NCBI GenBank assembly: GCA_013349435.1
Contig: DUZQ01000017.1
Span: 1-40,544, forward strand
From: Planctomycetota bacterium
GTDB lineage: Bacteria > Planctomycetota > Phycisphaerae > Sedimentisphaerales > Anaerohalosphaeraceae
Length of the DNA stretch: 40,544 bases
Direction: 5' to 3'
Shown: positions 1,881-23,403 of the stretch, one piece after another
How the letters are laid out: the number at the start of each line of letters is the position of its first letter
Numbering within the stretch: the stretch's first letter is position 1
Notes under the pieces: generated by a model
What the model saw: the letters and a program-made list of their open reading frames with translations, nothing else
Database searches by the model: none
What the model was told of the DNA's origin: nothing
Translations under genes and position numbers: made by a program

Positions 1881-1900
1881 ACCAACCAAAAGGTGTGCAG

Positions 1901-4643: not shown

Positions 4644-5306
4644 ATGACAAAGAAAAACGATACGAAAGAAACTACCCAGGTCCGGGCCGTGCCGCTGACT
4701 CTCAGGGCACAGAGCTTCCTGCTCAAGCTCAAAGGCTGTCTTGACGGGCTTGTTGATGCGTACTGCAGCCTGACAAAAATAGAATCCGTTGAGGCAAGAG
4801 AGCTGGTCTCTAAAAAGGCTGCTGGACTGATGCATCGCGGTCAATACGGAAAAGCTATTGACCAATACAACAAACTGGTCGGCATGGGCAAAGAAGATGC
4901 GGGTCTTTATTACAACCTCGGTATCTGCTGTGAGCGGGAAGGTATGGACGCCGAGGCCGAGGAGGCTTATAAGAAGGCCTTTGAGACAGACAAAAACCTC
5001 ACCGATGCCCTTTACAGACTGGGTCTTATGGCCATAAAGAACGACGACGCCAAAGCGGCGGTGAAGTATCTCGGTACCCTTGCCCGCAAAGACAAAGACT
5101 CGTTCGACATTATGTACAACCTCGGTGTTGCCTACGACAAGCTGAAGGATTATGAAAAAGCGGCGGACAACTTCGCCAAGGCCGCAAAGATTGAACCGAA
5201 TTACTCCAAGGCCCACAAGAGACTTGGTTACACCTATGAGGCAATGGGCCGGCGCGAAGATGCGATGGAATGTTTCAAAAAGGCTATGGAACTGGAAGAA
5301 ATATAA
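4644..5306 (+). CDS. mamA: MamA, TPR scaffold of the magnetosome
   Basis: A 220-residue soluble protein with an N-terminal helical segment and about five tetratricopeptide repeats (residues about 55-218; for example GLYYNLGICCEREGMDAEAE and KAHKRLGYTYEAMGRREDAM). The last repeat ends FKKAMELEE, very like Magnetospirillum MamA (FKKANELDE). MamA coats the cytoplasmic face of magnetosomes and is thought to recruit other proteins. Length matches MamA. It is coupled to mamI and is followed 156 bases later by mamQ. A generic TPR protein is the alternative, but the neighbours make MamA most likely. Confidence 0.88.
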   Translation: MTKKNDTKETTQVRAVPLTLRAQSFLLKLKGCLDGLVDAYCSLTKIESVEARELVSKKAAGLMHRGQYGKAIDQYNKLVGMGKEDAGLYYNLGICCEREGMDAEAEEAYKKAFETDKNLTDALYRLGLMAIKNDDAKAAVKYLGTLARKDKDSFDIMYNLGVAYDKLKDYEKAADNFAKAAKIEPNYSKAHKRLGYTYEAMGRREDAMECFKKAMELEEI

Positions 5307-5462: not shown

Positions 5463-6164
5463 ATGGCGGTTCCTTTTAGAAAAACCCGCAGTACAAAACG
5501 TCGGGAGCAGGTACGGGTTATCCTGGGGCCGGAGCATTTTCAAAGTAAACGACGGCTGCACTTGTTGGGCCGGTTTATCTTTGAACATTACCTGTCTATT
5601 TCCATAACCGTGGCGGCGGTTATTTGTGCATACACCAATATTTATTACTACAATAAGTTGATAAGGATGGAACAGCAGATAGGAAACCTGCGGGCACAGG
5701 TAGGAGCGGGTATTCAAATGAGGCAAAACATTGTTGTCAGCCTGACCGCGGCGGTGGACCGGTTTATAACTCATGAGCAGGGCATATTTACCAACGCGAT
5801 GGAGACAAGGGAGAACTCTATGGGCGTCTCGAATGATTTGACAAAGCTTGTTCAAAGCGAAGAGAAATTTTCTCCGTCCGGTTTAACAAAGCTTATGGCT
5901 GTTGCGGAAAATTACCCCCAACTGGTTTCAAGTCAGCCATACAAGGTGCTCGTCGAAAAGATAGGGCAGGTTGAAAGCTCTATTTACGAAAAGAGGATTG
6001 AGTACAACAACGCTGTAAATGTCTATAACACGCGTTTAAGCACTTTTCCGGTCAACATAATCGGAAGGATTCTGCGATTCGGGCTTGAACCCTATTTTTC
6101 CCGGGACAACAGGGCCGAGTGGGTATTTGGAATAGAAAATAAAAACGCAGAAATCGGAAATTGA
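5463..6164 (+). CDS. mamQ: MamQ, LemA-family magnetosome membrane protein
   Basis: A 233-residue LemA-type protein: a basic N-terminus, one membrane helix (about 43-62) and a long helical domain starting YYYNKLIRMEQQIGNLRAQV, with the conserved LemA pattern SSIYEKRIEYNNAVNVYNTRL near 180-200. MamQ is required for magnetosome membrane formation; LemA homologues outside magnetosomes have unclear roles. The final 25 residues (EPYFSRDNRAEWVFGI) replace the usual LemA end. The start ATG 5463 has only a weak AAGG site. The 156-base gap before it contains no clear gene. Confidence 0.87.
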   Translation: MAVPFRKTRSTKRREQVRVILGPEHFQSKRRLHLLGRFIFEHYLSISITVAAVICAYTNIYYYNKLIRMEQQIGNLRAQVGAGIQMRQNIVVSLTAAVDRFITHEQGIFTNAMETRENSMGVSNDLTKLVQSEEKFSPSGLTKLMAVAENYPQLVSSQPYKVLVEKIGQVESSIYEKRIEYNNAVNVYNTRLSTFPVNIIGRILRFGLEPYFSRDNRAEWVFGIENKNAEIGN

Positions 6165-6250: not shown

Positions 6251-7150
6251 GTGGCGGTTGCCTGTAAACAATGTTATTGGTGTGCCAGGCATGTTGGTAA
6301 TTTGAACCTGTTAGGCAATATAGGCCTTCTTTTGATAAAACTTTTAGGGGGTATATTCGGTCACAGCGAAGCTTTAATCGCCGATGCCGTACATTCTCTC
6401 AGCGACGTTATTGTGTCGGTGATGCTTATCGTCGGCTTGAAGGTTTCCGCAGCCCCGCCGGATGATGACCATCACTGGGGTCACGGTCATGTTGAGTTTA
6501 TTGTAGCTATCGTAATAGGAACGTTGCTTGTCTGCGCGGCTATAACCATCGTGATTGTGGCATTGACGTCAATAGTTGAAGACGTTACACACGCTCCGGG
6601 CCTTCTGGCGGTATGGGCGGGATGTATAGCCGTTGTCGTTTGCGAGATTCTGTACAGACACGGTATTTGTGTCGGTGAGCAGATGAATTCCCCGGCGATG
6701 ATAGCAAATGCCAGAGAGAAAAGGTCGGATGCCTTCTCGTCGATTGCCGCCCTGACGGGTGTTTTCGGGGCCAGGATGGGTTTCGGTTTTCTTGACCCCG
6801 CCGCCGCTGTTGTTGTTGCTTTTATGATTGCCCGATTCGGGATTGAGACTCTTGTCTCGGGGGTCAGGGGCATAACGGATGAGTCTCTTGAGGACAGAGC
6901 AATGATTGCCAAGGTAAAAGAGTTTGTGCTGAAAGAGCAGGGGATAAAAGATATAGGTCGGCTGCGCGCCCGGCAGATCGGACAAAAAAAATGGGTTGAC
7001 ATCGAGGCAAAATTCGACCCTCAGATGAAGGTCTGTGAGGCGAAAGAAGCGATAGCCAATGTGAAGAAAAAAGTAACGGGCCGCTTCGAGGACGTGGCTG
7101 ATGTTGTAATTATATCCCGCGCAGCGGAGCCGGAGCTGAAAGAAATATAA
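6251..7150 (+). CDS. mamB: MamB-like CDF iron transporter, copy 1
   Basis: A 299-residue CDF transporter. It opens with a cysteine motif CKQCYWCARH (C5, C8, C11), then six membrane helices and a C-terminal metal-sensing domain. Helix 2 carries H48 and D52 (ADAVHSLSD) and helix 5 carries E156 and D160 (NAREKRSDAFSS). DDDHHWGHG lies between helices 2 and 3. The CVGEQMNSPAMIANA segment matches MamB. CDF proteins exchange cytoplasmic divalent metal for protons; MamB loads iron into magnetosomes. Start is GTG 6251, chosen because it includes the cysteine motif repeated in the adjacent copy. The 86-base gap upstream may hold a promoter. Confidence 0.9.
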   Translation: MAVACKQCYWCARHVGNLNLLGNIGLLLIKLLGGIFGHSEALIADAVHSLSDVIVSVMLIVGLKVSAAPPDDDHHWGHGHVEFIVAIVIGTLLVCAAITIVIVALTSIVEDVTHAPGLLAVWAGCIAVVVCEILYRHGICVGEQMNSPAMIANAREKRSDAFSSIAALTGVFGARMGFGFLDPAAAVVVAFMIARFGIETLVSGVRGITDESLEDRAMIAKVKEFVLKEQGIKDIGRLRARQIGQKKWVDIEAKFDPQMKVCEAKEAIANVKKKVTGRFEDVADVVIISRAAEPELKEI

Positions 7151-8050
7151 ATGACTGTTGCCTGCAACGAATGTTACTGGTGCGCAAGACATGTCGGCGG
7201 GATAAACCTGTGGGGCAACATCACCCTTCTTATCGTTAAGCTTCTTGGAGGCATGTTCGGCCGGTCTCAGGCGTTAATCGCCGATGCGGTTCATTCCTTA
7301 AGCGATGTTATAATAGCAATACTGGTTATCGTGGGTCTGAAGGTATCTTCGGCCCCGCCTGATGATGACCATCACTGGGGACACGGCAACATAGAGTTTA
7401 TCGTATCGGCAATAATAGGTGCGCTGCTTGTTTGTACGGCGATAACCATCACCATCGTATCCCTGGCTACGATTATACGGGGAGCCGTATATAACCCCGG
7501 TATCCCGGCGGTCTGGGCCGCCGCTATATCTGTTGTCGCAAATGAGATAATGTTCAGGCATTCCCTCTGCGTCGGTGAGCAGATGGATTCCCCCGCAATG
7601 ACAGCAAACGCCTGGGAGAACAGGGCGGACGTTTATTCGTCGCTTGCCGTGCTGGCAGGCGTCTTTGGTGCAAGGATAGGATTTGTGGTTCTTGACCCGA
7701 TAGCAGCAATTATTGTCGGCGTTATGATCGCCAAAAACGGCCTTGGGACACTTACATCAGGCGTCAAAGGCATAACAGACAGCGCTTTTGACAATAAGGC
7801 GATGATTTCTCAACTGAAAAGGATGGTCACAAAACAGCAGGGCATAATAGAAATAAGCAAGTTGCGCGGCCGAAAGGTCGGGCAGAAGCTCTGGATTGAT
7901 ATCGAAGCGATGTTTGAACCGCAGATGAAGGTATCCGAGGTTAAAAAAACAATTAACGTCATCAGGGAAAATGTGATTAATCAGTTCGACGGGATAGGAG
8001 ATGTTGTAATAGTATCCCGCATCCCGGGACCCCGGCTAAAGGAAATATAA
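7151..8050 (+). CDS. mamB: MamB-like CDF iron transporter, copy 2
   Basis: ATG 7151 directly follows the previous stop. The protein also has 299 residues and aligns without gaps to copy 1: CNECYWCARH at the N-terminus, H48/D52 in helix 2, the DDDHHWGHG loop, E156/D160 in helix 5 (NAWENRADVYSS) and a C-terminal domain with the LKEI ending. A recent-looking tandem duplication is clear; roughly half or more of positions are identical by eye. Classical clusters use a MamB/MamM heterodimer, so these copies may form such a pair. ANAWENR is closer to Magnetospirillum MamB than copy 1 is. The next gene starts 3 bases later. Confidence 0.9.
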   Translation: MTVACNECYWCARHVGGINLWGNITLLIVKLLGGMFGRSQALIADAVHSLSDVIIAILVIVGLKVSSAPPDDDHHWGHGNIEFIVSAIIGALLVCTAITITIVSLATIIRGAVYNPGIPAVWAAAISVVANEIMFRHSLCVGEQMDSPAMTANAWENRADVYSSLAVLAGVFGARIGFVVLDPIAAIIVGVMIAKNGLGTLTSGVKGITDSAFDNKAMISQLKRMVTKQQGIIEISKLRGRKVGQKLWIDIEAMFEPQMKVSEVKKTINVIRENVINQFDGIGDVVIVSRIPGPRLKEI

Positions 8051-8052
8051 CA

Positions 8053-11000
8053 GTGAAACATAAAAAGATAACGGATGATATGACACATAAAGAAGCGGAA
8101 CAGTTACTCGAACACAAGAAGCGTGTACTGAGGCGCTGGGCCATAGTAACGGGCTTTTTGGCTCTTGCGGCCTTCGGCCTGCTCGCAATGGATCTTCTTG
8201 ACCGCGTTCTCAAAGGGGGCCAGGACGGCTCGCTTGAGATAAACTACAGCAAAGTGGAAAAAAAGATTGCCTGGCTCGGCTCGGAAATACGTGACCTGGA
8301 TGCCACTATCAGTGACGCGCTGAGATTGACGTCATCAGACGGCGTTCTGGTAAATAATGTAACACCCGGTTCACCGGCGGACCGGGCCGGTCTTGTAAGG
8401 GGAGATGTTATTCTTTCCCTCGATGGAACGCCGACGGTTGATTCCTTTCAGATACAGGACCAGATTGGCCGGCTTGACCCGGGAGACACTGTTAAGCTTG
8501 TTGTCGATACTATAGACGGCCCAAAGAGAAATGTTTATGTTACACTTGGTGTCAAGCCGGATGATGACACGGCCACAACCGACACAAATATCAAAAAGGT
8601 AGCGGACGTATCTGACAAAACAGCCGACCCGGTGCTTCCGACACCGTGGGGAATATCCGTCTCTCCGTTGACCGACCAGGTCAAAGAGCAGTTCGGCATA
8701 CCGGCTACCGAGCAGGGAGTTGTCATTGTTGCCGTTGTTCAGGAAGGGCTTGCCGACTCGCAGGGCCTTGAAGTGGGTGATGTTATTGAGAGCATTAACC
8801 GGATTCCGACACCCAACCTGCAGGCCTTTTATCAGGCGCTCCGGGACGATGAGAGCGTCCTGATGGATGTTTATTCCCCGGACGAGGACAAGAGATTCTT
8901 TGTTACACTTCCCGATGAAGGCGATTCGGCGCCACAGGTGGTGTTGATGAGTTTTGACGAGGAGACACCAAAAACGAACCGCATAGTTGTCCCATCTGAT
9001 TCGGCGGGTCTGGATGGGCAGGTTTACTACCGGTTCGCATCCGCTGGGTATTTTATTTTGTACGACTTTACCGAAAGCAAAGCGACCGCTATCCAGAACC
9101 CGTATGCCGCCCAGGTTCGCGGTACGGGGATAACGGTAGCACAAATGCTGATAGGACAAAAGATTGACGCCGTAATAGCAGGCGCAATAGGTCCGCAATC
9201 GTTTGACACATTTTATTTAGCCGGGATTAAAATCTACGGACCTGCCACCGGCAGCGTGCGAACCGCGATAACAAATTATCAGTTGGATAGGTTGCCTCAA
9301 TTAAAGGAAGCCAACCTGGGTGGATACGGGTATTCCTCGGCGGCAACGCTCCCGGCGGGAGGCTCACCGTGGACAGAGGATTCCGAAGATGAAAGTGACG
9401 GTCTTTCCGGTCAGCCTTTGACAATTCCCCCTATGGGCAAACCCGACGAGTTAACACTTACCGCTCAGGGCGACGCTCGAGCAAGCAGGCCTGAAACCTG
9501 CGTCTGCCCCAATTGCGGCGCCGAGGTTACTCACCCGGCAAATACATCGTGTGCCGACATGGTATGTCCTGTATGCGGCTCACAGCTTATGACCGCAACA
9601 CCGGGAACGGATTCAATTACCGGTACGGATATAACAAGCCAGCTTCCGGCAACACAGATACCTACACAGCTAAGGCCTGTATCATTGACGGCGGGGACAC
9701 CGAGCCGGATTTCGGCAATACCGACGGCAAACAATCTCTGGGCTTTAAGCAATCAGCCTGAAAATGTTCGGCCTGTACAACAAACAGCGGCTACCACCAC
9801 ACAGGTATCAGTTTGTATATGTCCGCTGGACGGAACCACAGTAACTCATCCGATAGGTGTTCCGTGTTCGGCACTGCAATGTCCGGTTTGCGGCGGCAGA
9901 ATGGTAAGCGGTGCCAGTCCGACTGCCGGCGCGATAACAGCAACAGCCGGGATACAAACCGGCGGCAGCCCAATGGTTTCAACCAGCGCAATGCAAACCA
10001 GCAGTAAACCTGATGACATGCCGCCCATACAGCAGGCATTTTACTTAGTGCCGGTATCGAGCAAGCCGGATGACATACCACCAGTTCCTTCAGGTCAGGC
10101 TCAACAGGTGGTGTATATTCCGGTATCCGGCGGACCGCCACAGGAAAATGCCGGTGTGGGTCCATCCGACGCCGGTCCGGCGGTGGACGGACAGTCACAG
10201 GGTGGAGGACAGGCCGGTGCGGGGGCCGCTCAAAGCGGCCGGGCGACTTTGTGTGTTTGTCCTGTGTGTAATGTAACAGTAACACACCCGATAGGCGTTC
10301 CATGTGCCTCCCTTACGTGTCCTGTGTGCGGGTCCCGACTGGTCAACGCAGAACCCGGAGGCGCAACAGGCGGTGCGATGACCCCGACCGCAGGTATGCC
10401 GACCGGTGGGATACAAACGAGCAGTAAACCGGACGAGATACCCCCCATTCAACAGGCCTTCTATGTAATACCGATAGGTGGTAAACCGGATGATGTACCG
10501 CCTGTCCAGCAGGCGTTTTACCTTTTGCCGGTATCAAGCAAGCCTGAAGACATACCACCTTTAGGCCAGACCGTGCAAGGACCTTTGACTCCTACGTCCG
10601 GGGGGCCTCCACAGGATGGTTCCGGTGTAGGCCCGTCAGATGCGGGACCGGCGGTGGACGGGCAATCCCAGGGCGGCGGCCAGGCCGGTTCAGGTGCGGC
10701 CCAGAGCGGCCGTTCGACATTATGTATATGTCCTATGTGTAATGTAGCGGTAACACACCCAATCGGCGTCCCTTGCTCCTCGCTTACCTGTCCTGTTTGC
10801 GGCTCACGGTTGGTTAATGCCGAGCCCGGAGGCACAACCGGTGGCGGGGCAATGACAACAGCAGCGGCAACAACGGCTGCTTCAACATCGAGTATAGTTT
10901 ATGTAGCAGGCGCCTCCAGAAAGGTCGTTATTCCGTCAACCGGCAGGAGCCCGAAATCCGATATCGCACCACTTATGGACGAAGCCCGTTATTTCTTGAT

Positions 11001-11352
11001 GTTCGGCCTGGGAACGTATGACGCCGTACCAAATCCATATTACAGGGACAAAAGGGCAACCGGTACCGAAATTGCTCAATTCATAGTCTCTGAGGGTGGC
11101 GCTGTTGTTATATGCAATAACGTAAGCGCAACAGCCCTGAAAGCCCTTAAAGACCTCAAGGTCAAGGTATATACCGGTTTTGTGGGTACTGTCCAGCAGG
11201 CTGTCGAGATATACACTGACGGCAGGCTTAAGGATTCCGGAAGCGTTACAGGGACTGCCGTTGAGGACAGCACAAGCGAGCACGAAGGTGGTGGAGGTCC
11301 ACCATCGTCGAAGGACAAGAGAAAGGAAAAGGATGAGGCGGAGGTGTTTTAA
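8053..11352 (+). CDS. Large PDZ/NifX/cysteine-repeat magnetosome protein
   Basis: A 1099-residue protein of unusual make-up. In order: cytoplasmic tail, membrane helix (about 29-48), PDZ 1 (about 75-170), PDZ 2 (about 197-295), a NifX/dinitrogenase-cofactor-type domain (about 312-425), four cysteine modules beginning near 483, 588, 734 and 891, and a second NifX-type domain (about 957-1065), then a charged tail. The typical module is CxCPxC, THPIGVPC, CPVCG; the second module lacks one Cys (CPLDG). Pro-rich linkers repeat SSKPDDIPP and PIQQAFY. NifX-fold domains bind metal clusters; the cysteine modules look like zinc-ribbon or rubredoxin-type sites. No CxxCH is present. Start GTG 8053. It probably faces the lumen. 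Confidence 0.8.
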   Translation: MKHKKITDDMTHKEAEQLLEHKKRVLRRWAIVTGFLALAAFGLLAMDLLDRVLKGGQDGSLEINYSKVEKKIAWLGSEIRDLDATISDALRLTSSDGVLVNNVTPGSPADRAGLVRGDVILSLDGTPTVDSFQIQDQIGRLDPGDTVKLVVDTIDGPKRNVYVTLGVKPDDDTATTDTNIKKVADVSDKTADPVLPTPWGISVSPLTDQVKEQFGIPATEQGVVIVAVVQEGLADSQGLEVGDVIESINRIPTPNLQAFYQALRDDESVLMDVYSPDEDKRFFVTLPDEGDSAPQVVLMSFDEETPKTNRIVVPSDSAGLDGQVYYRFASAGYFILYDFTESKATAIQNPYAAQVRGTGITVAQMLIGQKIDAVIAGAIGPQSFDTFYLAGIKIYGPATGSVRTAITNYQLDRLPQLKEANLGGYGYSSAATLPAGGSPWTEDSEDESDGLSGQPLTIPPMGKPDELTLTAQGDARASRPETCVCPNCGAEVTHPANTSCADMVCPVCGSQLMTATPGTDSITGTDITSQLPATQIPTQLRPVSLTAGTPSRISAIPTANNLWALSNQPENVRPVQQTAATTTQVSVCICPLDGTTVTHPIGVPCSALQCPVCGGRMVSGASPTAGAITATAGIQTGGSPMVSTSAMQTSSKPDDMPPIQQAFYLVPVSSKPDDIPPVPSGQAQQVVYIPVSGGPPQENAGVGPSDAGPAVDGQSQGGGQAGAGAAQSGRATLCVCPVCNVTVTHPIGVPCASLTCPVCGSRLVNAEPGGATGGAMTPTAGMPTGGIQTSSKPDEIPPIQQAFYVIPIGGKPDDVPPVQQAFYLLPVSSKPEDIPPLGQTVQGPLTPTSGGPPQDGSGVGPSDAGPAVDGQSQGGGQAGSGAAQSGRSTLCICPMCNVAVTHPIGVPCSSLTCPVCGSRLVNAEPGGTTGGGAMTTAAATTAASTSSIVYVAGASRKVVIPSTGRSPKSDIAPLMDEARYFLMFGLGTYDAVPNPYYRDKRATGTEIAQFIVSEGGAVVICNNVSATALKALKDLKVKVYTGFVGTVQQAVEIYTDGRLKDSGSVTGTAVEDSTSEHEGGGGPPSSKDKRKEKDEAEVF

Positions 11353-12266
11353 TGGCACAGAGCAAACTCGAAAAAATGAAGGAAAATCGCAAGCGCTCTG
11401 CGGTTGATGCAGTCATGGTTATACTGGTTGTCGGATTTATCATTCTTATAGCATGTCAGTTACTTTTTTTCAGCTTCGAGATGCAACAAAGAACCAGAAC
11501 AACAGGCACCGTTCAGGACGGCTCTTCTGATGTCGTCGGCGCCGAATTAACCCTGACGTCGTCGCAGGTACAGCTTGTTTCGTGTTCCGATGACGACCTT
11601 CCAGATGCTGTGGCGGCGGCGAGGGGAGCGGTTGTAAATATAGATGTCGCCGGCGCAGATGTCGGTCCCTCGAACAGAAGGGGCGGACCTGCTTTGAGTT
11701 TTGATATGCCGTCAACAACGGCCCTGCAAACGGATGATGAAACGCTGGGTTCGGGGATTATCGTCGATTCCCGCGGGTATATTCTTACCTGCTATCACTT
11801 GATAAAAGACTATCCCATTGTCAGCGTTACTGTATTCGGCTCTGTTCGCCGGATATATAAGGCAAATGTAGTTGATGTCGATATCGCCAACGACCTTGCG
11901 ATACTGAAGATAGAACCGGAGTGGCCTTTACCGGTGGCGAAACCGGCAAACTCGGATATGGTCAAGATAACCGATACGGTTCTTGCAATCGGCTCGCCTT
12001 TTGGATTCGAACATACGGTAACGGAGGGCATTATCAGTGACAACAAACGAGGTATCGTCATTGGTGAAGCCGTATATGAAGATATATTTCAAACGGATGC
12101 CGCTATAAACCGCGGCAGCGCCGGCGGCGCACTGATAAACAGTGAGGGCCAAGTGGTTGGTGTTAATACCGCTATAGCATCTCCGTCGGGATATTTTTCA
12201 GGTATCAGTTTCGCGATACCAATAAACAAGGCCAGACCGCTTTTATTGAAAGCGATAGACGGATAA
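11352..12266 (+). CDS. mamO: MamO-like trypsin-fold pseudoprotease
   Basis: A 304-residue protein with one membrane helix (about 19-41) and an HtrA-type domain homologous to the protease at 1901. H149 (CYHLI) and D181 (ANDLAIL) remain, but the serine loop reads NRGSAGGAL with Ala257 at the nucleophile position, so it should be catalytically dead. Magnetospirillum MamO is also a degenerate protease reported to bind metal and promote mineral formation. The C-terminal TauE-like domain of classical MamO is absent. The symbol therefore marks functional analogy, and the loss could be independent. ATG 11352 overlaps the previous stop by one base. Confidence 0.75.
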   Translation: MAQSKLEKMKENRKRSAVDAVMVILVVGFIILIACQLLFFSFEMQQRTRTTGTVQDGSSDVVGAELTLTSSQVQLVSCSDDDLPDAVAAARGAVVNIDVAGADVGPSNRRGGPALSFDMPSTTALQTDDETLGSGIIVDSRGYILTCYHLIKDYPIVSVTVFGSVRRIYKANVVDVDIANDLAILKIEPEWPLPVAKPANSDMVKITDTVLAIGSPFGFEHTVTEGIISDNKRGIVIGEAVYEDIFQTDAAINRGSAGGALINSEGQVVGVNTAIASPSGYFSGISFAIPINKARPLLLKAIDG

Positions 12267-12314: not shown

Positions 12315-13547
12315 GTGGAAGAGAAAAAAACAAAAGGCAAGTTAAGCGCTCTGTTTGCCTTTGTGTTCGGCATAATACTTATGTTGGGTGTATATATCCT
12401 GTTCGAATTCGCCCCCAACAGGCTAAGGGCCGGTTCCACAGAAGAAACTACAGATACTGCAACCGGCATTTTGAAAACCGCCAATATTATGCAAACCACA
12501 ACAGCCGAAGAAACGCCCGTTTGCCCATCCGTTTTTTTGGGGGTGGAGATTACCCCAGTTAACGCTGTGATTGCCGAGCAGTTATCACTGCCGGGCGAGC
12601 GAGGGGTTCTTATAAACGGCGTAGTTGACAACTCCGGCGCACAAAAGGCGGGGCTTCAAAGAGGCGATTGTTTGATTGCTTTGGGCGGCAAGGCGATAGA
12701 GGACATCGAGGGTTTCAGGCAACTTTTAGCTGCGTACAATCCCGGCGACAACGTCAGAATAGCTTATATAAGAAATGCCCAAAAGGATACGGTGTACGTC
12801 CGGCTTACCGAACTGCCTGATACTGTGGAAACAGCCGGGGATACCGGCTCAACCGATACCAACTGGGGCATATCGATTTCAGAGCTCGGTTCGGCCCAAC
12901 GCGACTTACTCAACATCCCTTCGGATATAGATGGGGTGGCGATTCTTTCGGTAGCACCCGGAGGCACAGCGGATGCAGCAGGTTTGCAGCCGGGTGATGT
13001 TATCACGGGCATCGACAAGACACCCATATCCGGAATGGATGATTTTTTCAGCGCCTTATCATCCGACAATGACAATGTCGCCCTTCTGGATATTTACAGT
13101 GGAGGTACTATACGTTATGTGCCGCTGAATTCATCGGTTATTTTGGAACCAGGCGACCAGACGCAAAGTCAGGCAACGTTGCGGGAGAAGATATTTGCCC
13201 TGTTTGCCGGAGGAGTGCCGTTTGCAACCGATGAAGATAGAGATGAGGACGGGCCGAAAGGCGGCAAATTCGTCCAGGACAACGTCCGGCTTACAACAGG
13301 GGATAATCCCGCTTTCAACAGGCCTTCAACCGTGCCGGGAGATGAAAATACGGGCGGCACATCAAACTGGACACCCGGCACACCGGGCGGTACAAGCAGC
13401 ACTACGGGCATGAACAGGCCCTCGGAAGTACCGCCCCAGTTAAGCTCGACAAACGATACCGTATTATTTACAGGACTGTTGTTACTTTTGATTCTTTATC
13501 TTTCCTACAGGGAATACCACAGGCCGCCGGAGGTCAAAAAGAGTTAA
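12315..13547 (+). CDS. Double-PDZ protein with a membrane helix at each end
   Basis: A 410-residue protein: N-terminal membrane helix (about 11-31), PDZ 1 (about 72-165), PDZ 2 (about 183-278), a Gly/Pro/Thr-rich linker (about 300-375) and a second helix (about 380-398) with a basic tail. Both helices anchor it, so the PDZ pair should face the lumen. The PDZ pair is the same cassette as in the pyrophosphatase fusion at 14571. GTG 12315 is supported by a strong AAAGGAGG about 9 bases upstream. No protease or heme motif is present. PDZ pairs usually bind C-terminal peptides; partners are unknown. Confidence 0.8.
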   Translation: MEEKKTKGKLSALFAFVFGIILMLGVYILFEFAPNRLRAGSTEETTDTATGILKTANIMQTTTAEETPVCPSVFLGVEITPVNAVIAEQLSLPGERGVLINGVVDNSGAQKAGLQRGDCLIALGGKAIEDIEGFRQLLAAYNPGDNVRIAYIRNAQKDTVYVRLTELPDTVETAGDTGSTDTNWGISISELGSAQRDLLNIPSDIDGVAILSVAPGGTADAAGLQPGDVITGIDKTPISGMDDFFSALSSDNDNVALLDIYSGGTIRYVPLNSSVILEPGDQTQSQATLREKIFALFAGGVPFATDEDRDEDGPKGGKFVQDNVRLTTGDNPAFNRPSTVPGDENTGGTSNWTPGTPGGTSSTTGMNRPSEVPPQLSSTNDTVLFTGLLLLLILYLSYREYHRPPEVKKS

Positions 13548-14458
13548 TGACTGAGCTGACCGAAGAGAAAAAAAGTTTGTTGAAAAGGGTGCTCATCGCT
13601 TTACTCATAAGGCCTCCGGTTATTTTGATACTTCTTCCTCTGTGTCTGTTTTTGCTAAGCTACGGAGAAACACAAAACACAACGGTCGAGGAAAGGTTCG
13701 GCTTGTCTTCGTCGATAAAATCACCTTATAAAGACACAATAAAAGGTACCTTCGTTTATTCTTTCGCTTTTTGCGGCGATCCTCATATGTATTCAAAAGG
13801 AGACGGCTGCTTTGACGACCTTGACAGGGCGATAAAACTGAACCAAATAAGATTCGTTATATTCGGCGGAGACCTTACTTACCTTGGCGAAGAAGCCGAG
13901 TACAGTAATTTTATTGACCATATAAGCACACTGACATCACCTTCTTACCCTGCATTGGGCAATCATGATATTTATAACAACGGATGGGAGTATTACTGGA
14001 GATACTTCGGGCCTTCGGCATATTCTTTCAATGGTGGTAATGCCAAATTTGTTGTAATCGACAGCGCCGACGGCGAGATAGGTGATGCACAGATGGAGTG
14101 GATTCACAATCAACTGCGTAACAATAAACAACCCATTGTGTTTGTAGTAAGCCATATGCCGATATACGGCGACTCCTACGGAGTATATAAATTTCCCGAA
14201 ACAAAAGAAAAACAGCAGCTTATAGAGATTTTCGAGAAATATGAGGTGGATTTTGTTCTGCAGGGCCATTATCACGGCTTCGTGGATATTTCACACAACG
14301 GCGTCCGCTATATTACCTCGGGTAGTTTTTCCGACGGTCTTCTGGATTCAGGGATACGGCATTTTCTTTTAATTAAAGTGTACGGCCCCGAAGTTACCAT
14401 TGAACAGGTACCGGTCGGCCAAGACATACCGGTTCAATATATGGACGGCGCAATTTAG
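13547..14458 (+). CDS. Membrane-anchored calcineurin-like metallophosphoesterase
   Basis: A 303-residue protein with one N-terminal membrane helix (about 19-40) and a metallophosphoesterase domain. The metal-binding motifs are present in order: GDPH, GGDLTY, GNHD, SHMP and GHYHG. With the N-terminus inside, the catalytic domain should face the periplasm or lumen. The family splits phosphomonoesters or diesters with two metal ions, often Fe, Mn or Zn. ATG 13547 overlaps the previous stop (TAATG), so it is translationally coupled to the PDZ gene. It precedes a pyrophosphatase, which hints at phosphate chemistry in this cluster; substrate unknown. Confidence 0.85.
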   Translation: MTELTEEKKSLLKRVLIALLIRPPVILILLPLCLFLLSYGETQNTTVEERFGLSSSIKSPYKDTIKGTFVYSFAFCGDPHMYSKGDGCFDDLDRAIKLNQIRFVIFGGDLTYLGEEAEYSNFIDHISTLTSPSYPALGNHDIYNNGWEYYWRYFGPSAYSFNGGNAKFVVIDSADGEIGDAQMEWIHNQLRNNKQPIVFVVSHMPIYGDSYGVYKFPETKEKQQLIEIFEKYEVDFVLQGHYHGFVDISHNGVRYITSGSFSDGLLDSGIRHFLLIKVYGPEVTIEQVPVGQDIPVQYMDGAI

Positions 14459-14570: not shown

Positions 14571-17474
14571 TTGGATAACCGAAACAAAGTGCAATTTGAC
14601 AGATGCCCCAAGGATTACGTTAAGTGGACCATAGTTGTAGCAGGTATGGTGTTCGCTTTTTTTTCTTACCTGCTGTATTCAAATGTAACAGGCCTTGACC
14701 TTAATCTTCCCGGAGCCGAGGCTATCGGTGAATTCACAGATTCAATCGAACAGGGAGCAATTATTAAAACAGTTGCGGATAAACAGGCATCTGCTTGGCC
14801 GGGTGCTTTTCTCGGAGTAACGATTGTCTCGGTGGATGAAGTTATTGCTGAACAACTGGGCATATCGGACGGACACGGAGTATTAATAAATAGTGTCATA
14901 AGCGGCTCACCAGCCGAGGAAGCGGGCCTGCAAAGAAGCGATGTCCTCGCCGTCATAAACAGCACCGCCGCAAAGGACATAGAGACATTCAAAGAAATTA
15001 CGGCGTCATTAGAGCCGGGCGATACCGTCAGAATCACTTATGTAAGAGACGGCAAAAAGAACCGCACGTATGCAACTGTTATCGAGCCGCCCGCCATTGT
15101 GCTAACTGCACAAACAGCGGATACAAATACCCAAATTACAGATGATTCCGATTGGGGTATATCAATTTCGGCAATCAATTCAACTCTGCGGGATACATAC
15201 GATATTCCCGGCGATATCGAAGGTATTATAATCGTATCAGTGGTACCCGGCGGTGCAGCGGACGAAGCAGGCCTTGCACGCGGCGATGTAATCGTAGGTG
15301 TTAATGGAAAATCAATATCAGATATTGACGATTTCTTTGAGGCAGCGGCATCCGATGAAGACAACACAACCCTTCTGGATGTGTACAACCTGGGTCAGTT
15401 TCGTTATATATCTATGGCTTCGGTAAACACAAACAATTCCATCTGTGGTGCCGATGAGCCGGTCCCTGTTGAGCAGTTGCCGAAATATGAAGCTCTGCTT
15501 CGGGCTGTGCCGTTAGTCGGCGTTGCGGGCTTGGGTTTTGCGCTGCTGGGCTATTTTTCTCTCTTCGGGTATCCGGCGGGTAATCAAAAAATGCAGTCTA
15601 TTGCCGAAAAAATCCGCTCAGGCACGGTGGTTTTTCTGAAACAGGAATATAAAATAACAGCGATTTTCCTGCTCGCGTCATTTCTTGCAATTTGCTTTAC
15701 ACTGTGTCTTTCTACAGCAATAGCTTTCCTTGCCGGTTCGGTCTGTTCGATGCTGCCCGGCTGGATTGGTATGAAAGCCGCTACCACCTCAAACGTACGA
15801 ACCTGCCAGGCCGCCGGGAAAAAAGGTCTGACCGAAGCGTTAAATGTCGCTTTTCTCGGCGGCTCTGTCATGGGTATCTCCGTGGCGTCCGTCGGCATCA
15901 TCGGGCTTGGCACTTATGCTCTTGTCGTACTGAACGGCGATTATCCGGGGGAACTGCCGTATGTTGTCGCCGGTTTCTGCCTTGGTGCTTCTTTCTTTGC
16001 ATTGTTTGGCAGAGTGGGCGGGGGGATATTTACCAAAAGTGCCGACATCGGGGCTGATATGACGGGCAAGATTGAATACAACCTGCCGGAGGACGACCCC
16101 CGTAATCCGGCGGTAATCGCAGATAACGTCGGAGATAACGTCGGAGATATTTCCGGCATGGGTTCGGACCTTTTCGAGTCTTATACCAGTTCTACGGTGG
16201 CAGCAATTATCATGGGACTTAGAACGGGCGAGTTAAAATATGTAGTACTGCCGCTCGTATTGATTGCAGCGGGTCTTATCTGCTGTCTGTTGAGCATCGC
16301 GGCAAGTAAACTTCTTAGCAGACGTGCCCATCCCCAGACCTTTTTGCGAAATGTTATTTATGTCGCAAACGGGCTGTTCCTCATCGCTGCCTTGGTGATA
16401 ATTATTGCCGTAACAGGCCGATTCAGTCTTTTTCTGACGGTTGTAATCGGTGTTCTGTGCGGGCTTTTGATCGGTCTTGAGACAGAGTATTTCGGTTCCG
16501 GATGGCCAATCAGACATATTGTGAATATGTCTAAAACAGGAGCCGCCACAAACATAATCGCCGGATTAGCGGTCGGTTTCACCGGTGCGCTGCTGCCCAT
16601 CATTACAATATGTGCGACTATAACCGTAACACTATTGCTGGCGGGGCTGTATGGGATTGGCCTTTCAGCGGTGGCGATGTTGGCGACAATGGCAATTATT
16701 ATGTCCATCGACGCCTATGGCCCGATTGTCGATAACGCCGGCGGAATAGCGACCATGAGTCGGGCGGAAAAAGAAACTCGAAGAATAACGGACAAGCTTG
16801 ATGCTGCCGGCAATATTACGGCCGCGGTAGGCAAAGGATTTACAATTGGTGCCGGTGTAATAACAGCGGTGGCTTTGTTTGCAGCTTATATCGGCGGAAC
16901 GAAATTAGCAGACGCCGAGTTATTTACCCCTGCGGTGCTTGTGGGCTTGCTTCTCGGCGCCGTTTTGCCGCTTTTCTTTGCCGCCTGGACGATGGGGGCG
17001 GTTACCAGGATAGCGAACAAACTGGTTATTGAGGTTCGACGGCAGTTCAAAGAAATCAAAGGTTTATCAACCGGTAAAGCCGAGCCGGATTCCGACAGTT
17101 GCGTAAATGTCATTGCACGTGATTCATTAACGGCCACGATCGTCGCGGGTGTAATTGCTATCGCTTCGCCTTTTGTCGTGGCCTTTACTTTGAAGGTGGA
17201 GGCGCTGGGCGGTTTTTTAGTCGGTTCAATGATTGTAGGAGCGGTATTAGGGCTTAGTATGTCTATCGGCGGAGGTGCGTGGGATAACGCCAAGAAATGG
17301 ATTGAGAGTCATCGTGAGGATGGGGACGATATGGAAGACGCCTATAAGGCGGCGGTGGTCGGAGATATGGTGGGTGACCCGTTTAAGGATGTTTCAGGTC
17401 CGGCTATGAATATCCTCATAAAGCTGATGGTTACTATTTCGCTGGTATTTTGTTCGGTCCTTTGTTCAACGTAA
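14571..17474 (+). CDS. Double-PDZ fused to membrane-embedded ion-pumping pyrophosphatase
   Basis: A 967-residue fusion. It has a membrane helix (about 19-41), PDZ 1 (about 75-165), PDZ 2 (about 193-285) and then, from about 305 to the end, a full-length membrane pyrophosphatase. Pyrophosphatase motifs are intact: GGGIFTKSADIGADM near 483, EDDPRNP and DNVGDNVGD near 518, DAYGPIVDNAGG near 715, GNITAAVGKGF near 747 and GDPFKDVSGP near 935. These enzymes split cytoplasmic PPi and pump H+ or Na+ outward or into a lumen. The Ala after GNIT is the K+-dependent type. Start TTG 14571 is chosen for its GGGAAGGG site; TTG 14541 is an alternative. The PDZ pair closely matches neighbouring magnetosome proteins. 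Confidence 0.92.
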   Translation: MDNRNKVQFDRCPKDYVKWTIVVAGMVFAFFSYLLYSNVTGLDLNLPGAEAIGEFTDSIEQGAIIKTVADKQASAWPGAFLGVTIVSVDEVIAEQLGISDGHGVLINSVISGSPAEEAGLQRSDVLAVINSTAAKDIETFKEITASLEPGDTVRITYVRDGKKNRTYATVIEPPAIVLTAQTADTNTQITDDSDWGISISAINSTLRDTYDIPGDIEGIIIVSVVPGGAADEAGLARGDVIVGVNGKSISDIDDFFEAAASDEDNTTLLDVYNLGQFRYISMASVNTNNSICGADEPVPVEQLPKYEALLRAVPLVGVAGLGFALLGYFSLFGYPAGNQKMQSIAEKIRSGTVVFLKQEYKITAIFLLASFLAICFTLCLSTAIAFLAGSVCSMLPGWIGMKAATTSNVRTCQAAGKKGLTEALNVAFLGGSVMGISVASVGIIGLGTYALVVLNGDYPGELPYVVAGFCLGASFFALFGRVGGGIFTKSADIGADMTGKIEYNLPEDDPRNPAVIADNVGDNVGDISGMGSDLFESYTSSTVAAIIMGLRTGELKYVVLPLVLIAAGLICCLLSIAASKLLSRRAHPQTFLRNVIYVANGLFLIAALVIIIAVTGRFSLFLTVVIGVLCGLLIGLETEYFGSGWPIRHIVNMSKTGAATNIIAGLAVGFTGALLPIITICATITVTLLLAGLYGIGLSAVAMLATMAIIMSIDAYGPIVDNAGGIATMSRAEKETRRITDKLDAAGNITAAVGKGFTIGAGVITAVALFAAYIGGTKLADAELFTPAVLVGLLLGAVLPLFFAAWTMGAVTRIANKLVIEVRRQFKEIKGLSTGKAEPDSDSCVNVIARDSLTATIVAGVIAIASPFVVAFTLKVEALGGFLVGSMIVGAVLGLSMSIGGGAWDNAKKWIESHREDGDDMEDAYKAAVVGDMVGDPFKDVSGPAMNILIKLMVTISLVFCSVLCST

Positions 17475-17484
17475 AGGAGCCAAG

Positions 17485-17970
17485 GTGAGTTTTGAAGACA
17501 TTGTTTGTGATGTTGCCAATAATATGGGCCGGCTTGCAGGTAAAGGCCGTAACATATTATTTTCGGCCCGGAAAAAGCTCGAAGACTCAGCGCAAGGACT
17601 GAATCCAAAGGAGCTGCCCCAAAAAATTCGCAACGCCGTTTTCGAGAAACTCTCTCGCACTCTCTACAAACAGGCTGAGTTTGTGTTGGGCAAGGTCTCG
17701 GAGCGAATGGAAGTGATAGATGAAGTTGCCGGGCCCTTTTATGAAAAAGTCAATGCCTTAAACTCCCAGGGCCCGGTCAGCGAAGGGCAGTTATGGCAAG
17801 CTTTGAATTCAATCGAAGCGGCTAAAAAACTAACTGACGAAGAAAAGGTCCTGTTGGTAAACATTTTCGGAGCAATCATCGGCTCCGCCAGGTCTAAATA
17901 TGTTGATGCTGTTGTTCTTGAAGAGGACGCGGTTTCGCGGGACAAAATTGATCCCCCAAGCCGGGACTGA
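17485..17970 (+). CDS. Helical protein of unknown function, paralogue A
   Basis: A 161-residue soluble, mostly helical protein with no family I recognise. It starts at GTG 17485 behind AAAGGAG, 11 bases after the pyrophosphatase stop. It is homologous along its length to the protein at 20082: similar N-terminus (MSFEDIVCDVANNMGR against MSLTDVISDFAHGMGK) and a shared GPVSE, LT(D/E)(D/E)E(K/R) and LV segment. The C-terminal region is the same place where 20082 and the PAS protein at 20592 share a tail motif. A cytoplasmic magnetosome-associated adaptor is one guess; nothing in the sequence fixes a function. Confidence 0.7.
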   Translation: MSFEDIVCDVANNMGRLAGKGRNILFSARKKLEDSAQGLNPKELPQKIRNAVFEKLSRTLYKQAEFVLGKVSERMEVIDEVAGPFYEKVNALNSQGPVSEGQLWQALNSIEAAKKLTDEEKVLLVNIFGAIIGSARSKYVDAVVLEEDAVSRDKIDPPSRD

Positions 17971-22284: not shown

Positions 22285-23403
22285 ATGGTTATAAAGCACG
22301 AAAAAATACGGAGCACAAAACAAGCCGGCAAAAAAAACAGGCCAAATTCTTCGGTTTCCAAAATTCCTTCTCCTTTTGCCCCAAAAGGCAAGGCTCTCTT
22401 CGTGGGCATAGATCTGGGGACCTCCCGGGCATCCATAGCAGCAAGCAACGGTGTTCGGGAGGTAATGCCCACATACGTAGGTTATCCCAAGGATAATATA
22501 TCTGAAGAGTTATTAGGTAATAAGCCACTTTTTGGAGATGCGGCACTGAAACACCGCTTAAGTTTAGAGCTTGTCCGCCCTTTAGCACATGGTGTCATCC
22601 AGAATAACGGCAAATCTGGAAACAACAAGTATCTGACGGCTGCTAAGCAATTGGTGCGGTACCTTCTGCAAAAAGCACGTCCGAAACCCGGCCAACCTGT
22701 ATATGGTGTAATAGGGGCACCGGCACGAGCAAGTATCGCCAGTAAACGCATTCTTATAGATGCAGCCAGTGGCATCCTCGATGCGGTTATGATTGTTTCT
22801 GAGCCTTTTACAGTGGCTTATGAGCTTGGCGTTCTCGACCAGGCACTGGTTATCGATATTGGCGCAGGAACTGTAGATTTATGCCGTTTGCATGGAACAC
22901 TGCCCCAAAATCAGGACCAGATTACATTGGATCAAGCGGGTGATTATGTTGATGATGCCCTTTCAAAAATTATCCGCAAGAAATACCCAAAGGCACAGTT
23001 TTCTATAAATATGGTTAGAAAACTGAAGGAACGCCATGGTTTTGTCTCGGAAAACTCGGACCGGGTAAAGGCAAAATTCCCTGTCGATGGCAGGCCTCGC
23101 GAATTTGATGTTACCGATGAATTGAGAAAAGCCTGCAAAAGCATAGTGCCTGGAATGGTCAGCTCGATTGCCAAACTTATTGCCACATACGACCCTGAGT
23201 TTCAGCAAGCCTTGCGCTCCAATGTAATATTGGCCGGCGGCGGCAGCCAAATGGTGGGACTGCCTGAATTAATTGAAGATGCGATGGACGAATTAGGCGG
23301 CGGCCAGGTAAGCCGGGTTGATGAGCCGCTTTTTGCAGGCTCAAACGGGGCGTTAAAAATGGCGCGGCGAATGCCGGTACATTTCTGGAAAGTGTTAACG
23401 TAA
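22285..23403 (+). CDS. mamK: MamK, actin-like magnetosome filament protein
   Basis: A 372-residue actin-superfamily ATPase. Phosphate loop 1 is VGIDLGTSRAS (about 40-50), phosphate loop 2 is VIDIGAGTVDL (about 189-199), and the C-terminal part has AGGGSQMVGLPELI and GSNGAL. MamK polymerises into filaments that hold the magnetosome chain. The match to MamK (VGIDLGTSR, GNKPLFGDAAL, RPLAHGVI) is better than to MreB or ParM. A Lys-rich N-terminal extension of about 35 residues precedes the actin fold, longer than in classical MamK. AAAGGAG lies 8 bases before ATG 22285. The gene stands apart, with long gaps on both sides. Confidence 0.92.
   Translation: MVIKHEKIRSTKQAGKKNRPNSSVSKIPSPFAPKGKALFVGIDLGTSRASIAASNGVREVMPTYVGYPKDNISEELLGNKPLFGDAALKHRLSLELVRPLAHGVIQNNGKSGNNKYLTAAKQLVRYLLQKARPKPGQPVYGVIGAPARASIASKRILIDAASGILDAVMIVSEPFTVAYELGVLDQALVIDIGAGTVDLCRLHGTLPQNQDQITLDQAGDYVDDALSKIIRKKYPKAQFSINMVRKLKERHGFVSENSDRVKAKFPVDGRPREFDVTDELRKACKSIVPGMVSSIAKLIATYDPEFQQALRSNVILAGGGSQMVGLPELIEDAMDELGGGQVSRVDEPLFAGSNGALKMARRMPVHFWKVLT

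What the first reader, a model, noticed from the sequence alone, without database searches (positions are those of the whole stretch)
14571..17474. Magnetosome-type double PDZ fused to an ion-pumping pyrophosphatase
Seen: one frame joins a membrane helix and two PDZ domains, nearly identical in motif to neighbouring magnetosome PDZ proteins, to a full-length membrane pyrophosphatase with all catalytic motifs. Known: membrane pyrophosphatases place both termini on the outside or lumen side, so an N-in helix plus lumenal PDZ pair fits the topology exactly. Inferred: this tethers a PPi-driven pump to the magnetosome. I know of no described magnetosome pump of this kind.
Basis: partly seen in the sequence, partly recalled or inferred. 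Interest (0 to 1): 0.95.

Follow-up and report, generated by a model that had tools for sequence, protein, structure and literature searches.

The report
Magnetosome-docked pyrophosphate-driven ion pump
One bacterial gene joins a magnetosome-type docking module (two PDZ domains) to a complete pyrophosphate-driven ion pump and sits inside magnetosome gene clusters of three planctomycete genomes, so it would likely give this magnetic organelle its own powered pump, a kind of part that none of the titles and abstracts listed in my searches reports.

Summary
Window 14571-17474 encodes one 967-aa protein: an N-terminal membrane helix, two PDZ domains and a full-length membrane pyrophosphatase (mPPase). 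It is not an assembly chimera: 37 protein clusters (90% identity) share the architecture, and two other MAGs carry it in a near-collinear magnetosome cluster. The window's genome matches MAG_18080_pl_157, a published planctomycete MAG with a magnetosome cluster.

In all 161 held genomes of the order, a strong MamQ and the fusion occur in the same 3. No fusion was seen away from mam genes, but context was readable for three genomes only. Of 29 catalytic, gate and K+-site positions, 28 are invariant in 37 of 37. The signature fits K+-dependent Na+ or Na+/H+ pumps; an H+ pump is not excluded. The fused pumps form one clade, apart from the hosts' second mPPases included. The PDZ pair groups with neighbouring magnetosome PDZ proteins rather than HtrA.

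Likely mechanism (inferred): lumenal PDZs dock the pump in the magnetosome membrane, where cytoplasmic PPi drives cations into the lumen. Localisation and transport are untested. No title or abstract listed in my searches reports such a pump.

The parts
14571..17474 (+). PDZ-PDZ-membrane pyrophosphatase fusion gene (967 aa; longest ORF from 14541)
   Evidence: 37 fusion clusters including this one
14616..14690 (+). N-terminal membrane helix (residues 16-40), predicted N-in
   Evidence: hydropathy and charge count; helix in the model but low pLDDT there
14805..15086 (+). PDZ1 (residues about 79-172)
   Evidence: PF13180/PF17820/PF00595, beta/alpha pattern in the model
15147..15428 (+). PDZ2 (residues about 193-286)
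   Evidence: PF17820/PF00595, model
15477..17471 (+). complete membrane pyrophosphatase, 16 predicted transmembrane helices by my count (residues 303-967)
   Evidence: PF03030 1-645; Foldseek ranks 1-36 are solved mPPases, TM-score by target 0.82-0.89
16167..16181 (+). ion gate DLFES: D6.50, E6.53, S6.54
   Evidence: 37 of 37 fused proteins; mapped through the VrPPase alignment with the numbering of PMC5150537 / PMC10897367
16821..16835 (+). K+-site region A12.46 ... G12.49-K12.50
   Evidence: A and G 37 of 37, K 35 of 37 with 2 R; A aligns with VrPPase A537
13547..14458 (+). metallophosphoesterase directly upstream, N-terminal anchor by eye; conserved hydrophobic C-terminal tail, candidate PDZ ligand
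   Evidence: PF00149; tail YMDGxI in 4 of 4 genomes
12315..13547 (+). double-PDZ membrane protein, closest PDZ relative of the fusion within the window
   Evidence: 46% identity; same PDZ clade
8053..11352 (+). MamE-like double-PDZ protein with FeMo-Co-type and Cys-rich repeats; conserved C-terminal -AE(I/V)F tail, candidate PDZ ligand
17485..17970 (+). unknown small protein 10 bp downstream, also next to the fusion in G756 and G798
6251..8050 (+). two CDF transporters of MamB/MamM type
   Evidence: NF033616 / NF033615, 213-239 bits, below the curated cut-off of 350
5463..6164 (+). MamQ (LemA family)
   Evidence: NF040966 81 bits, below cut-off 250; among 161 genomes of the order, 67-76% identical matches only in G756 and G798
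4644..5306 (+). MamA-like TPR protein
   Evidence: NF040959 143.9 bits, below cut-off 200
11352..12266 (+). trypsin-like domain protein of MamE/MamO type
   Evidence: best model DegP-type TIGR02037 205 bits, MamE 185 bits, both below cut-off
1895..2830 (+). second trypsin-like domain protein of MamE/MamO type
   Evidence: TIGR02037 231 bits, MamE 211 bits, both below cut-off
22285..23403 (+). MamK actin-like protein
   Evidence: NF040964 426.7 bits, over cut-off 400

Best explanation
The gene encodes one polypeptide that joins a membrane helix and two PDZ domains to a complete membrane pyrophosphatase, and it is predicted to be held in the magnetosome membrane by lumenal PDZ contacts and to pump Na+, perhaps with H+, into the lumen by hydrolysing cytoplasmic pyrophosphate. 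Shown: the fusion, its conservation, its place in the magnetosome gene cluster, its intact catalytic and gate residues, the one-clade grouping of the fused pumps and the grouping of its PDZ pair with neighbouring magnetosome PDZ proteins. Inferred: N-in helix and lumenal PDZ pair (charge pattern plus known mPPase topology); docking of the PDZs to lumenal partners, of which the conserved C-terminal tails of the upstream metallophosphoesterase (YMDGxI) and the MamE-like protein (AE-I/V-F) are the best candidates; a lumen-positive cation gradient that powers secondary transport such as cation/iron exchange by the MamB/MamM-type carriers. As mPPases are homodimers (PMC10897367 abstract), it would offer four PDZ domains, which suits clustering.
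For: Architecture. Real and conserved: 37 clusters; junction in two further MAGs with matching neighbours; purifying selection. Magnetosome cluster: MamK over the curated cut-off, MamA/B/M/Q/E-type neighbours; fusion and strong MamQ in the same 3 of 161 genomes. Dedicated copy: all three carriers also have a separate mPPase match elsewhere (G798's is split at a contig edge), and the two I put in the tree (window genome, G756) lie in a different clade. Pump intact: 28 of 29 functional positions invariant in 37 of 37, K12.50 in 35 of 37; fold matches VrPPase/TmPPase. Class: E6.53, A12.46, G12.49 = Na+ or dual class in Table 1 of PMC10897367. PDZ pair: one clade with 9 of 10 cluster PDZ rows, SH-aLRT 99. 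MamE needed for magnetosome protein localisation: passages of PMC3905215 and PMC4902198.
Against: No localisation, binding or transport data. The ion is open: PMC5150537 says some K+-dependent H+-PPases also carry E6.53; 16.46 is N, and that paper prints D16.46 for TmPPase and N16.46 for VrPPase; the best-scoring solved sequences are of the H+ pump VrPPase (473-475 bits against 420 for TmPPase); NCBIfam passes it both as sodium-translocating (NF001960, 723.9 against 546) and as V-type H+ pump (TIGR01104, 663.8 against 651.9). If H+ were pumped in, the lumen would acidify, whereas magnetite is said to need a basic environment (PMC3905215). The main fused clade changed 19 positions that are near-invariant in the unfused rows (T749I, T933M, T941V and others), and position 728, E in the unfused rows printed, is T in 29, E in 5, Q in 2 and I in 1 of 37, so coupling could be altered. 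G802 has a cluster fragment but no fusion; its 4.9-kb contig ends 694 bp after the phosphoesterase gene, so this is inconclusive. Genomic context was visible for three genomes only. PDZ ligands are a guess from tails.
Confidence: 0.62

Rival explanations
1. The fusion is a working pump of the general cytoplasmic membrane, and the periplasmic PDZ pair is a sensor or quality-control arm, like the PDZ domains of HtrA/RseP proteins, not a magnetosome address.
For: PDZ pairs are common in periplasmic HtrA proteases; the best PDB sequence hits of the pair are DegP/DegQ-type proteases.
Against: The pair groups with magnetosome-cluster PDZ proteins apart from 14 HtrA rows (SH-aLRT 99); the gene lies within the cluster in all three genomes, with four genes between it and mamK in G756; each genome has a separate mPPase match already.
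Confidence: 0.2
2. The mPPase part mainly clears PPi from the cytoplasmic face of the organelle, or serves as a large membrane anchor, and ion transport is incidental or uncoupled.
For: Lineage-specific changes at near-invariant positions in the helix 12 and helix 16 regions.
Against: The gate residues S5.43, D6.50, E6.53, S6.54, N16.46 and K16.50 are invariant in 37 of 37, which an anchor or uncoupled hydrolase would not need.
Confidence: 0.12
3. The fusion is an assembly or gene-calling artefact.
For: The genome is a MAG; one database relative (P0026) is an odd splice to another transporter and is seen in one cluster only.
Against: 37 clusters, two further MAGs with the same join and matching neighbours, low dN/dS on both sides of and across the join.
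Confidence: 0.01

Closest known systems
K+-dependent Na+-translocating membrane pyrophosphatase (Thermotoga maritima TmPPase, 4AV3) and Na+/H+ co-pumps
   Same: Full-length domain, 16 helices by my count, catalytic residues, E6.53 / A12.46 / G12.49 signature
   Different: N-terminal membrane helix and two PDZ domains; lineage-specific changes; 16.46 is N, not D
Vigna radiata vacuolar H+-PPase (4A01)
   Same: Best sequence and fold match among solved structures; a pump of an organelle membrane fed by cytoplasmic PPi (general knowledge)
   Different: VrPPase has its gate glutamate at 6.57; here 6.57 is S, G or A and 6.53 is E
MamE / MamP magnetosome PDZ proteins
   Same: N-terminal helix and PDZ domain(s) (PMC3905215 passages), encoded in the magnetosome cluster
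   Different: No protease domain and no CXXCH magnetochrome; MamE model 54 bits against cut-off 800, MamP 44 against 300
Acidocalcisome / volutin-granule H+-PPase of Agrobacterium and Rhodospirillum
   Same: An mPPase in the membrane of a bacterial compartment (PMC3198990, passages)
   Different: Different compartment; docking module and mam cluster not mentioned in the passages seen (not tested by sequence)
MamN (Na+/H+-antiporter-like) of Magnetospirillum
   Same: Membrane protein of the magnetosome cluster thought to influence lumen pH (PMC3905215)
   Different: Antiporter homologue, a secondary transporter; the present protein is of a primary-pump family

Membership tests
Membrane pyrophosphatase (PF03030) | Full-length domain above the curated cut-off | tested here: met
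   728.4 bits against 29.7, profile 1-645 of 645
Membrane pyrophosphatase (PF03030) | 16-helix fold | tested here: met
   AF2 model, mPPase blocks mostly pLDDT 75-96, 16 helices by my count; Foldseek ranks 1-36 TM-score by target 0.82-0.89 to VrPPase, TmPPase and PaPPase
Membrane pyrophosphatase (PF03030) | Catalytic Asp/Glu/Lys/Asn set | tested here: met
   Invariant in 37 of 37; the list of catalytic positions is recalled
Membrane pyrophosphatase (PF03030) | PPi-dependent ion transport | not testable with these tools
   Needs vesicle assay
K+-dependent Na+- or Na+/H+-PPase subclass | A12.46, G12.49 and E6.53 | tested here: met
   37 of 37, class table in PMC10897367
K+-dependent Na+- or Na+/H+-PPase subclass | Separation from K+-dependent H+-PPases that also have E6.53 | tested here: inconclusive
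   PMC5150537 lists such pumps; NCBIfam passes both a sodium and an H+ model
MamE / MamP | Trypsin-like domain and/or CXXCH magnetochrome | tested here: not met
   Absent from the sequence and Pfam list; NCBIfam scores far below cut-offs
Magnetosome-cluster protein | Encoded inside a mam gene cluster in several genomes | tested here: met
   Window, G756 (= DUZJ01000030.1) and G798 (= JABMRO010000260.1)
Magnetosome-cluster protein | Located in the magnetosome membrane | not testable with these tools
   Needs tagging or proteomics
HtrA/DegP protease | Protease domain before the PDZ pair | tested here: not met
   No trypsin domain in the Pfam list

The most novel reading that the evidence does not exclude
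This is a primary ion pump dedicated to a bacterial organelle: a PPi-fuelled pump that carries its own lumenal docking module, arose once in magnetosome clusters, and energises the magnetosome independently of ATP and of the cytoplasmic membrane's gradient. The PDZ pair acts as an exchangeable address tag for membrane machinery.
Probability: 0.5. Interest if true: 0.92.

Novelty: new variant of a known kind. Interest (0 to 1): 0.82.

Why it matters
How the magnetosome lumen is energised and how its ion content is set are open questions; in the passages I read, carriers such as MamB/MamM, MamN and MamH are discussed, and no primary pump. A pump fused to a magnetosome-type PDZ pair makes the question directly testable: one gene, one substrate (PPi), one predicted address. 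It would also show a route by which bacteria deliver a transporter to an organelle, by covalent fusion to a lumenal docking module, and it would parallel the vacuole and the acidocalcisome, where PPi-driven pumps energise a compartment.

Tried and rejected
Assembly chimera: rejected (independent copies). Fusion derived from the host's own mPPase: not supported; the genome's second mPPase (C46, 859-aa frame) falls in another clade with other planctomycete-order copies, while the nearest unfused kin are short mPPases P0033, P0191 and L026 (candidate division BRC1). Loci of unfused kin: L025, L026 and L027 gave no match at E <= 1e-5 to the 11 mam-cluster queries checked there, and the 11.1-kb contig of G009, with a 49% identical unfused pump, matched the window proteins only by that pump. 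L025 and L027 are only 8.5 and 6.3 kb.

MamK as a marker of magnetosome clusters: dropped. MamK-like matches at E <= 1e-60 occur in 141 of 392 phylum genomes (91 over the cut-off) while the fusion was found in 1 of 392. MamQ was used instead: its three strong matches (E <= 2.5e-99) stand apart from LemA-family background (next best 4.9e-25; 135 of 161 genomes pass 1e-12).

PDZ pair binding the MamB/MamM tails: considered and set aside because CDF tails are cytoplasmic (PMC3905215 passage) and this PDZ pair is predicted lumenal; the same paper, however, reports MamE PDZ binding to the MamB C-terminus. A Na+ gradient driving MamN-type H+ removal: set aside, since Na+ pumped into the lumen would push such an antiporter the wrong way.

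PDZ pair as a general address tag: P0026 joins the same PDZ pair and the first mPPase helix (86% identical to P0022 over 340 aa) to an ArsP/YraQ-type permease (PF03773, 73.5% identical to P0065 over 325 aa), but it is the only such protein among the 120 hits listed of 1900, so it may be a chimera. TmPPase alignment: one search was meant to print one, but its three alignments were all of VrPPase, so residues were mapped through VrPPase.

Rows dropped: the first mPPase tree used 30 fused and 35 unfused rows, and warned that P0031 was a long branch joining the other fused rows. The second, with P0182-P0188 added, used 28 of 37 fused proteins and 31 unfused and gave no such warning for P0031; 21 rows of the first set were left out to save time and remove some long branches, one of them a duplicate. 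The PDZ tree used 12 of 37 fused rows, 10 cluster PDZ rows and 14 HtrA rows; the fused rows are not one clade there (2 changes), because neighbouring PDZ proteins fall inside them with modest support.
Full report
OBSERVATION. The frame at 14571-17474 (longest ORF from 14541) encodes a membrane helix, two PDZ domains and a complete membrane pyrophosphatase: PF03030 over positions 1-645 of 645 at E = 1.1e-218, and PDZ_2/PDZ_6/PDZ with two stretches each. The likelier start is TTG 14571, 967 aa (database form P0001). Residue numbers below are for the 967-aa form.

THE FUSION IS REAL AND RECURS IN METAGENOMES. A search with residues 60-420 of the 977-aa form returned 63 proteins, of which 30 (window included) have PDZ plus the pyrophosphatase domain, 945-989 aa. 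A second search from one of the more divergent of these, P0031, returned 62 proteins and 7 further fusions: 37 clusters in all. Both searches are limited to proteins that share 5-residue words with the query and scored about 8000 candidates each, so 37 is a lower bound. Two GTDB r220 contigs carry it: JABMRO010000260.1 (L023) and DUZJ01000030.1 (L024). The other 20 of the 22 loci of that pattern scan match only from query residue 224 on, i.e. the pump part; records of the window's own genome may be left out there. Among the three fused genes (window, G756, G798) dN is 0.07-0.11 and dS 0.62-1.08 overall. Ratios by part are about 0.11-0.30 (PDZ1, PDZ2), 0.08-0.14 (junction), 0.07-0.11 (mPPase) and 0.2-0.6 (first helix, linker; short, low dS).

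WHOSE GENOME. The window's assembly has 3,144,921 bases in 139 contigs. These figures match Planctomycetes MAG_18080_pl_157 in a table of Uzun et al. 2020 (PMC7449369; passages read), which assigns three of its planctomycete MAGs to the SG8-4 order of Phycisphaerae and groups planctomycetes with the putative greigite producers. The identification rests on size and contig number. DUZJ01000030.1 belongs to MAG_11118_pl_115 of the same paper, from another metagenome, and its contig length equals that of G756:C30. The main text of that paper holds no 'pyrophosph' and no 'PDZ'; its supplements were not readable here.

GENE NEIGHBOURHOOD. The window holds a magnetosome gene cluster: MamK is over the NCBIfam cut-off; MamA, MamQ and MamB/MamM models match below their cut-offs; two trypsin-like proteins match DegP-type models somewhat better than MamE. 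In G756 orthologues of the window genes from 299 to mamK lie on one contig in the same order, except that the pair 18268/19163 stands before the double-PDZ gene and one extra CDF-type gene is present. There the fusion follows the double-PDZ and phosphoesterase genes and precedes three small genes, a PAS protein and mamK. G798 has the G756 order from mamA to the third small gene, where its contig ends (so mamK is not seen), without a match for the extra CDF gene and with one 543-aa ORF between phosphoesterase and fusion. Spacing in the window suggests co-transcription: the phosphoesterase gene overlaps the preceding PDZ gene, and the next gene starts 10 bp after the fusion.

DISTRIBUTION. Order: 4 of 161 genomes pass E <= 1e-60; in 3 (G000, G756, G798) the match spans PDZ and pump parts, in the fourth, G802, it is the double-PDZ protein alone. 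Strong MamQ (E <= 2.5e-99) is in the same 3 of 161. G802 has a 4.9-kb cluster fragment with four cluster genes that ends before the place of the fusion. Class sample: 131 of 397 pass E <= 1e-25, 2 of 397 span both parts. Phylum sample: 1 of 392, the window itself. The samples overlap, and the class and phylum searches scored only the best 5 candidates per genome. No fusion without mam genes was found, but genomic context was visible for three genomes only.

THE PUMP. In an alignment of all 37 fused proteins I tallied 31 positions. Of 29 functional ones, 28 are invariant and K12.50 is K in 35 and R in 2. The other two are 6.57 (S 30, G 6, A 1) and residue 728 (T 29, E 5, Q 2, I 1), which is E in the unfused rows printed. 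Invariant ones include the gate (S5.43, D6.50, E6.53, S6.54, N16.46, K16.50) and A12.46/G12.49. By Table 1 of PMC10897367 (passages) E6.53 with A12.46 and G12.49 is the signature of K+-dependent Na+ and dual Na+/H+ pumps. PMC5150537 (passages) warns that some K+-dependent H+ pumps also carry E6.53. A12.46 and the helix-6 positions were mapped through the VrPPase alignment (A537, D294, E301); the 5.43, 16.46 and 16.50 positions and the list of catalytic residues are recalled motif positions. VrPPase is the best-scoring solved sequence, and NCBIfam passes both a sodium and an H+ model, so the ion is open. The AF2 model has mean pLDDT 77.1; pyrophosphatase blocks are mostly 75-96, PDZ blocks mostly 58-82, and the N-terminal 40 residues are low (29-52), so the arrangement of domains is not informative. 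I count 16 transmembrane helices in its pump part, and Foldseek ranks 1-36 are VrPPase, TmPPase and PaPPase chains.

ORIGIN. The fused pumps form one clade in both trees (SH-aLRT 98, with a long-branch warning for P0031; 99, where P0031 has close kin and no such warning). Both were short searches without bootstrap, so a single origin is likely rather than proven. Nearest unfused kin are short pumps, one in candidate division BRC1; the second pumps of the window genome and G756 lie elsewhere. The main fused clade changed 19 positions that are near-invariant in 36 unfused rows (one a duplicate); P0031 keeps many of the old states, so the join probably came before most of these changes. The PDZ pairs of 12 fusions and 9 of 10 cluster PDZ rows form one clade (SH-aLRT 99) apart from the 14 HtrA rows; the window's 31083 protein does not join it.

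TOPOLOGY AND DOCKING (inferred). 34 of 37 fused proteins have more K/R before the first helix than after it; P0014, which starts inside the helix, P0028 and P0030 do not. Two cluster proteins that by eye have an N-terminal anchor and a lumen-side body end in conserved hydrophobic tails: the phosphoesterase (YMDGAI, YMDGEI twice, YMDGQI; 4 of 4 genomes) and the MamE-like protein (EAEVF, EAEIF twice, DAEIF; 4 of 4). HtrA-type PDZ domains bind such C-termini (general knowledge), so these are my candidate ligands. MamE loss mislocalises magnetosome proteins (passages of PMC3905215 and PMC4902198), which makes a PDZ pair a sensible address.

MECHANISM. Most likely PPi in the cytoplasm drives Na+, perhaps with H+, into the lumen and makes it positive and cation-rich; this gradient would feed carriers such as the CDF proteins, which use proton antiport (PMC3905215 passage). 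Which ion is pumped and what uses the gradient are not settled.

LITERATURE. Searches: magnetosome + pyrophosphatase (10 papers), magnetosome gene cluster + Planctomycetota (9), membrane pyrophosphatase + PDZ (0), magnetosome + proton pump (27, 20 listed), magnetosome + MamN + proton + vesicle (4), membrane-bound pyrophosphatase + fusion + domain architecture (1), magnetosome + PDZ domain + MamE + localization (7), magnetosome + pyrophosphate (32, 15 listed); two searches served other questions. No listed title or start of abstract reports a magnetosome pyrophosphatase or a PDZ-pyrophosphatase fusion. Of nine papers I saw only passages found by term; term counts in the texts of PMC7602337 and PMC9376291 were 0 for PPase, proton, pump and PDZ, and in PMC9160268 0 for pyrophosph and proton. 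The other listed papers were not opened, and most subscription-journal papers are not in the library.

VERDICT. Observation confirmed. The interpretation passed the computational tests run here; localisation and transport remain to be shown.

Noticed in passing
window 8053-11352: MamE-like double-PDZ protein carries a FeMo-Co-binding-type domain (PF02579, two stretches) and repeated Cys-rich motifs of the form C-x-C-P-x-C ... THPxGVPC ... CPxCG; P0032, P0189 and P0190 show the same PDZ plus PF02579 pairing.
   Followed up: partly
P0026 (675 aa, no locus held): The same PDZ pair and first mPPase helix are spliced to an ArsP/YraQ-type permease; one cluster only, so a real domain swap or a chimera.
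   Followed up: partly
window 1158-1880: PDZ protein of 240 aa with about one PDZ domain here, but 334- and 337-aa frames matching both PDZ domains in G798 and G756.
   Followed up: no
L024 7388-8597: The double-PDZ orthologue of 12315-13547 matches in two overlapping frames in DUZJ01000030.1, suggesting a frameshift or sequencing error.
   Followed up: no
L104 4057-5688: 543-aa ORF between phosphoesterase and fusion in G798, with no room for it in the window or G756.
   Followed up: no
141 of 392 planctomycete genomes: MamK-like actin (E <= 1e-60) is widespread in the phylum; whether those genomes have magnetosome clusters was not tested.
   Followed up: no
fused mPPases, residues 728, 749, 933, 941: Conserved mPPase positions are changed in the main fused clade (for example GNTT to GNIT, GDTVGD to GDMVGD, KDTSGP to KDVSGP); meaning unknown.
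   Followed up: partly
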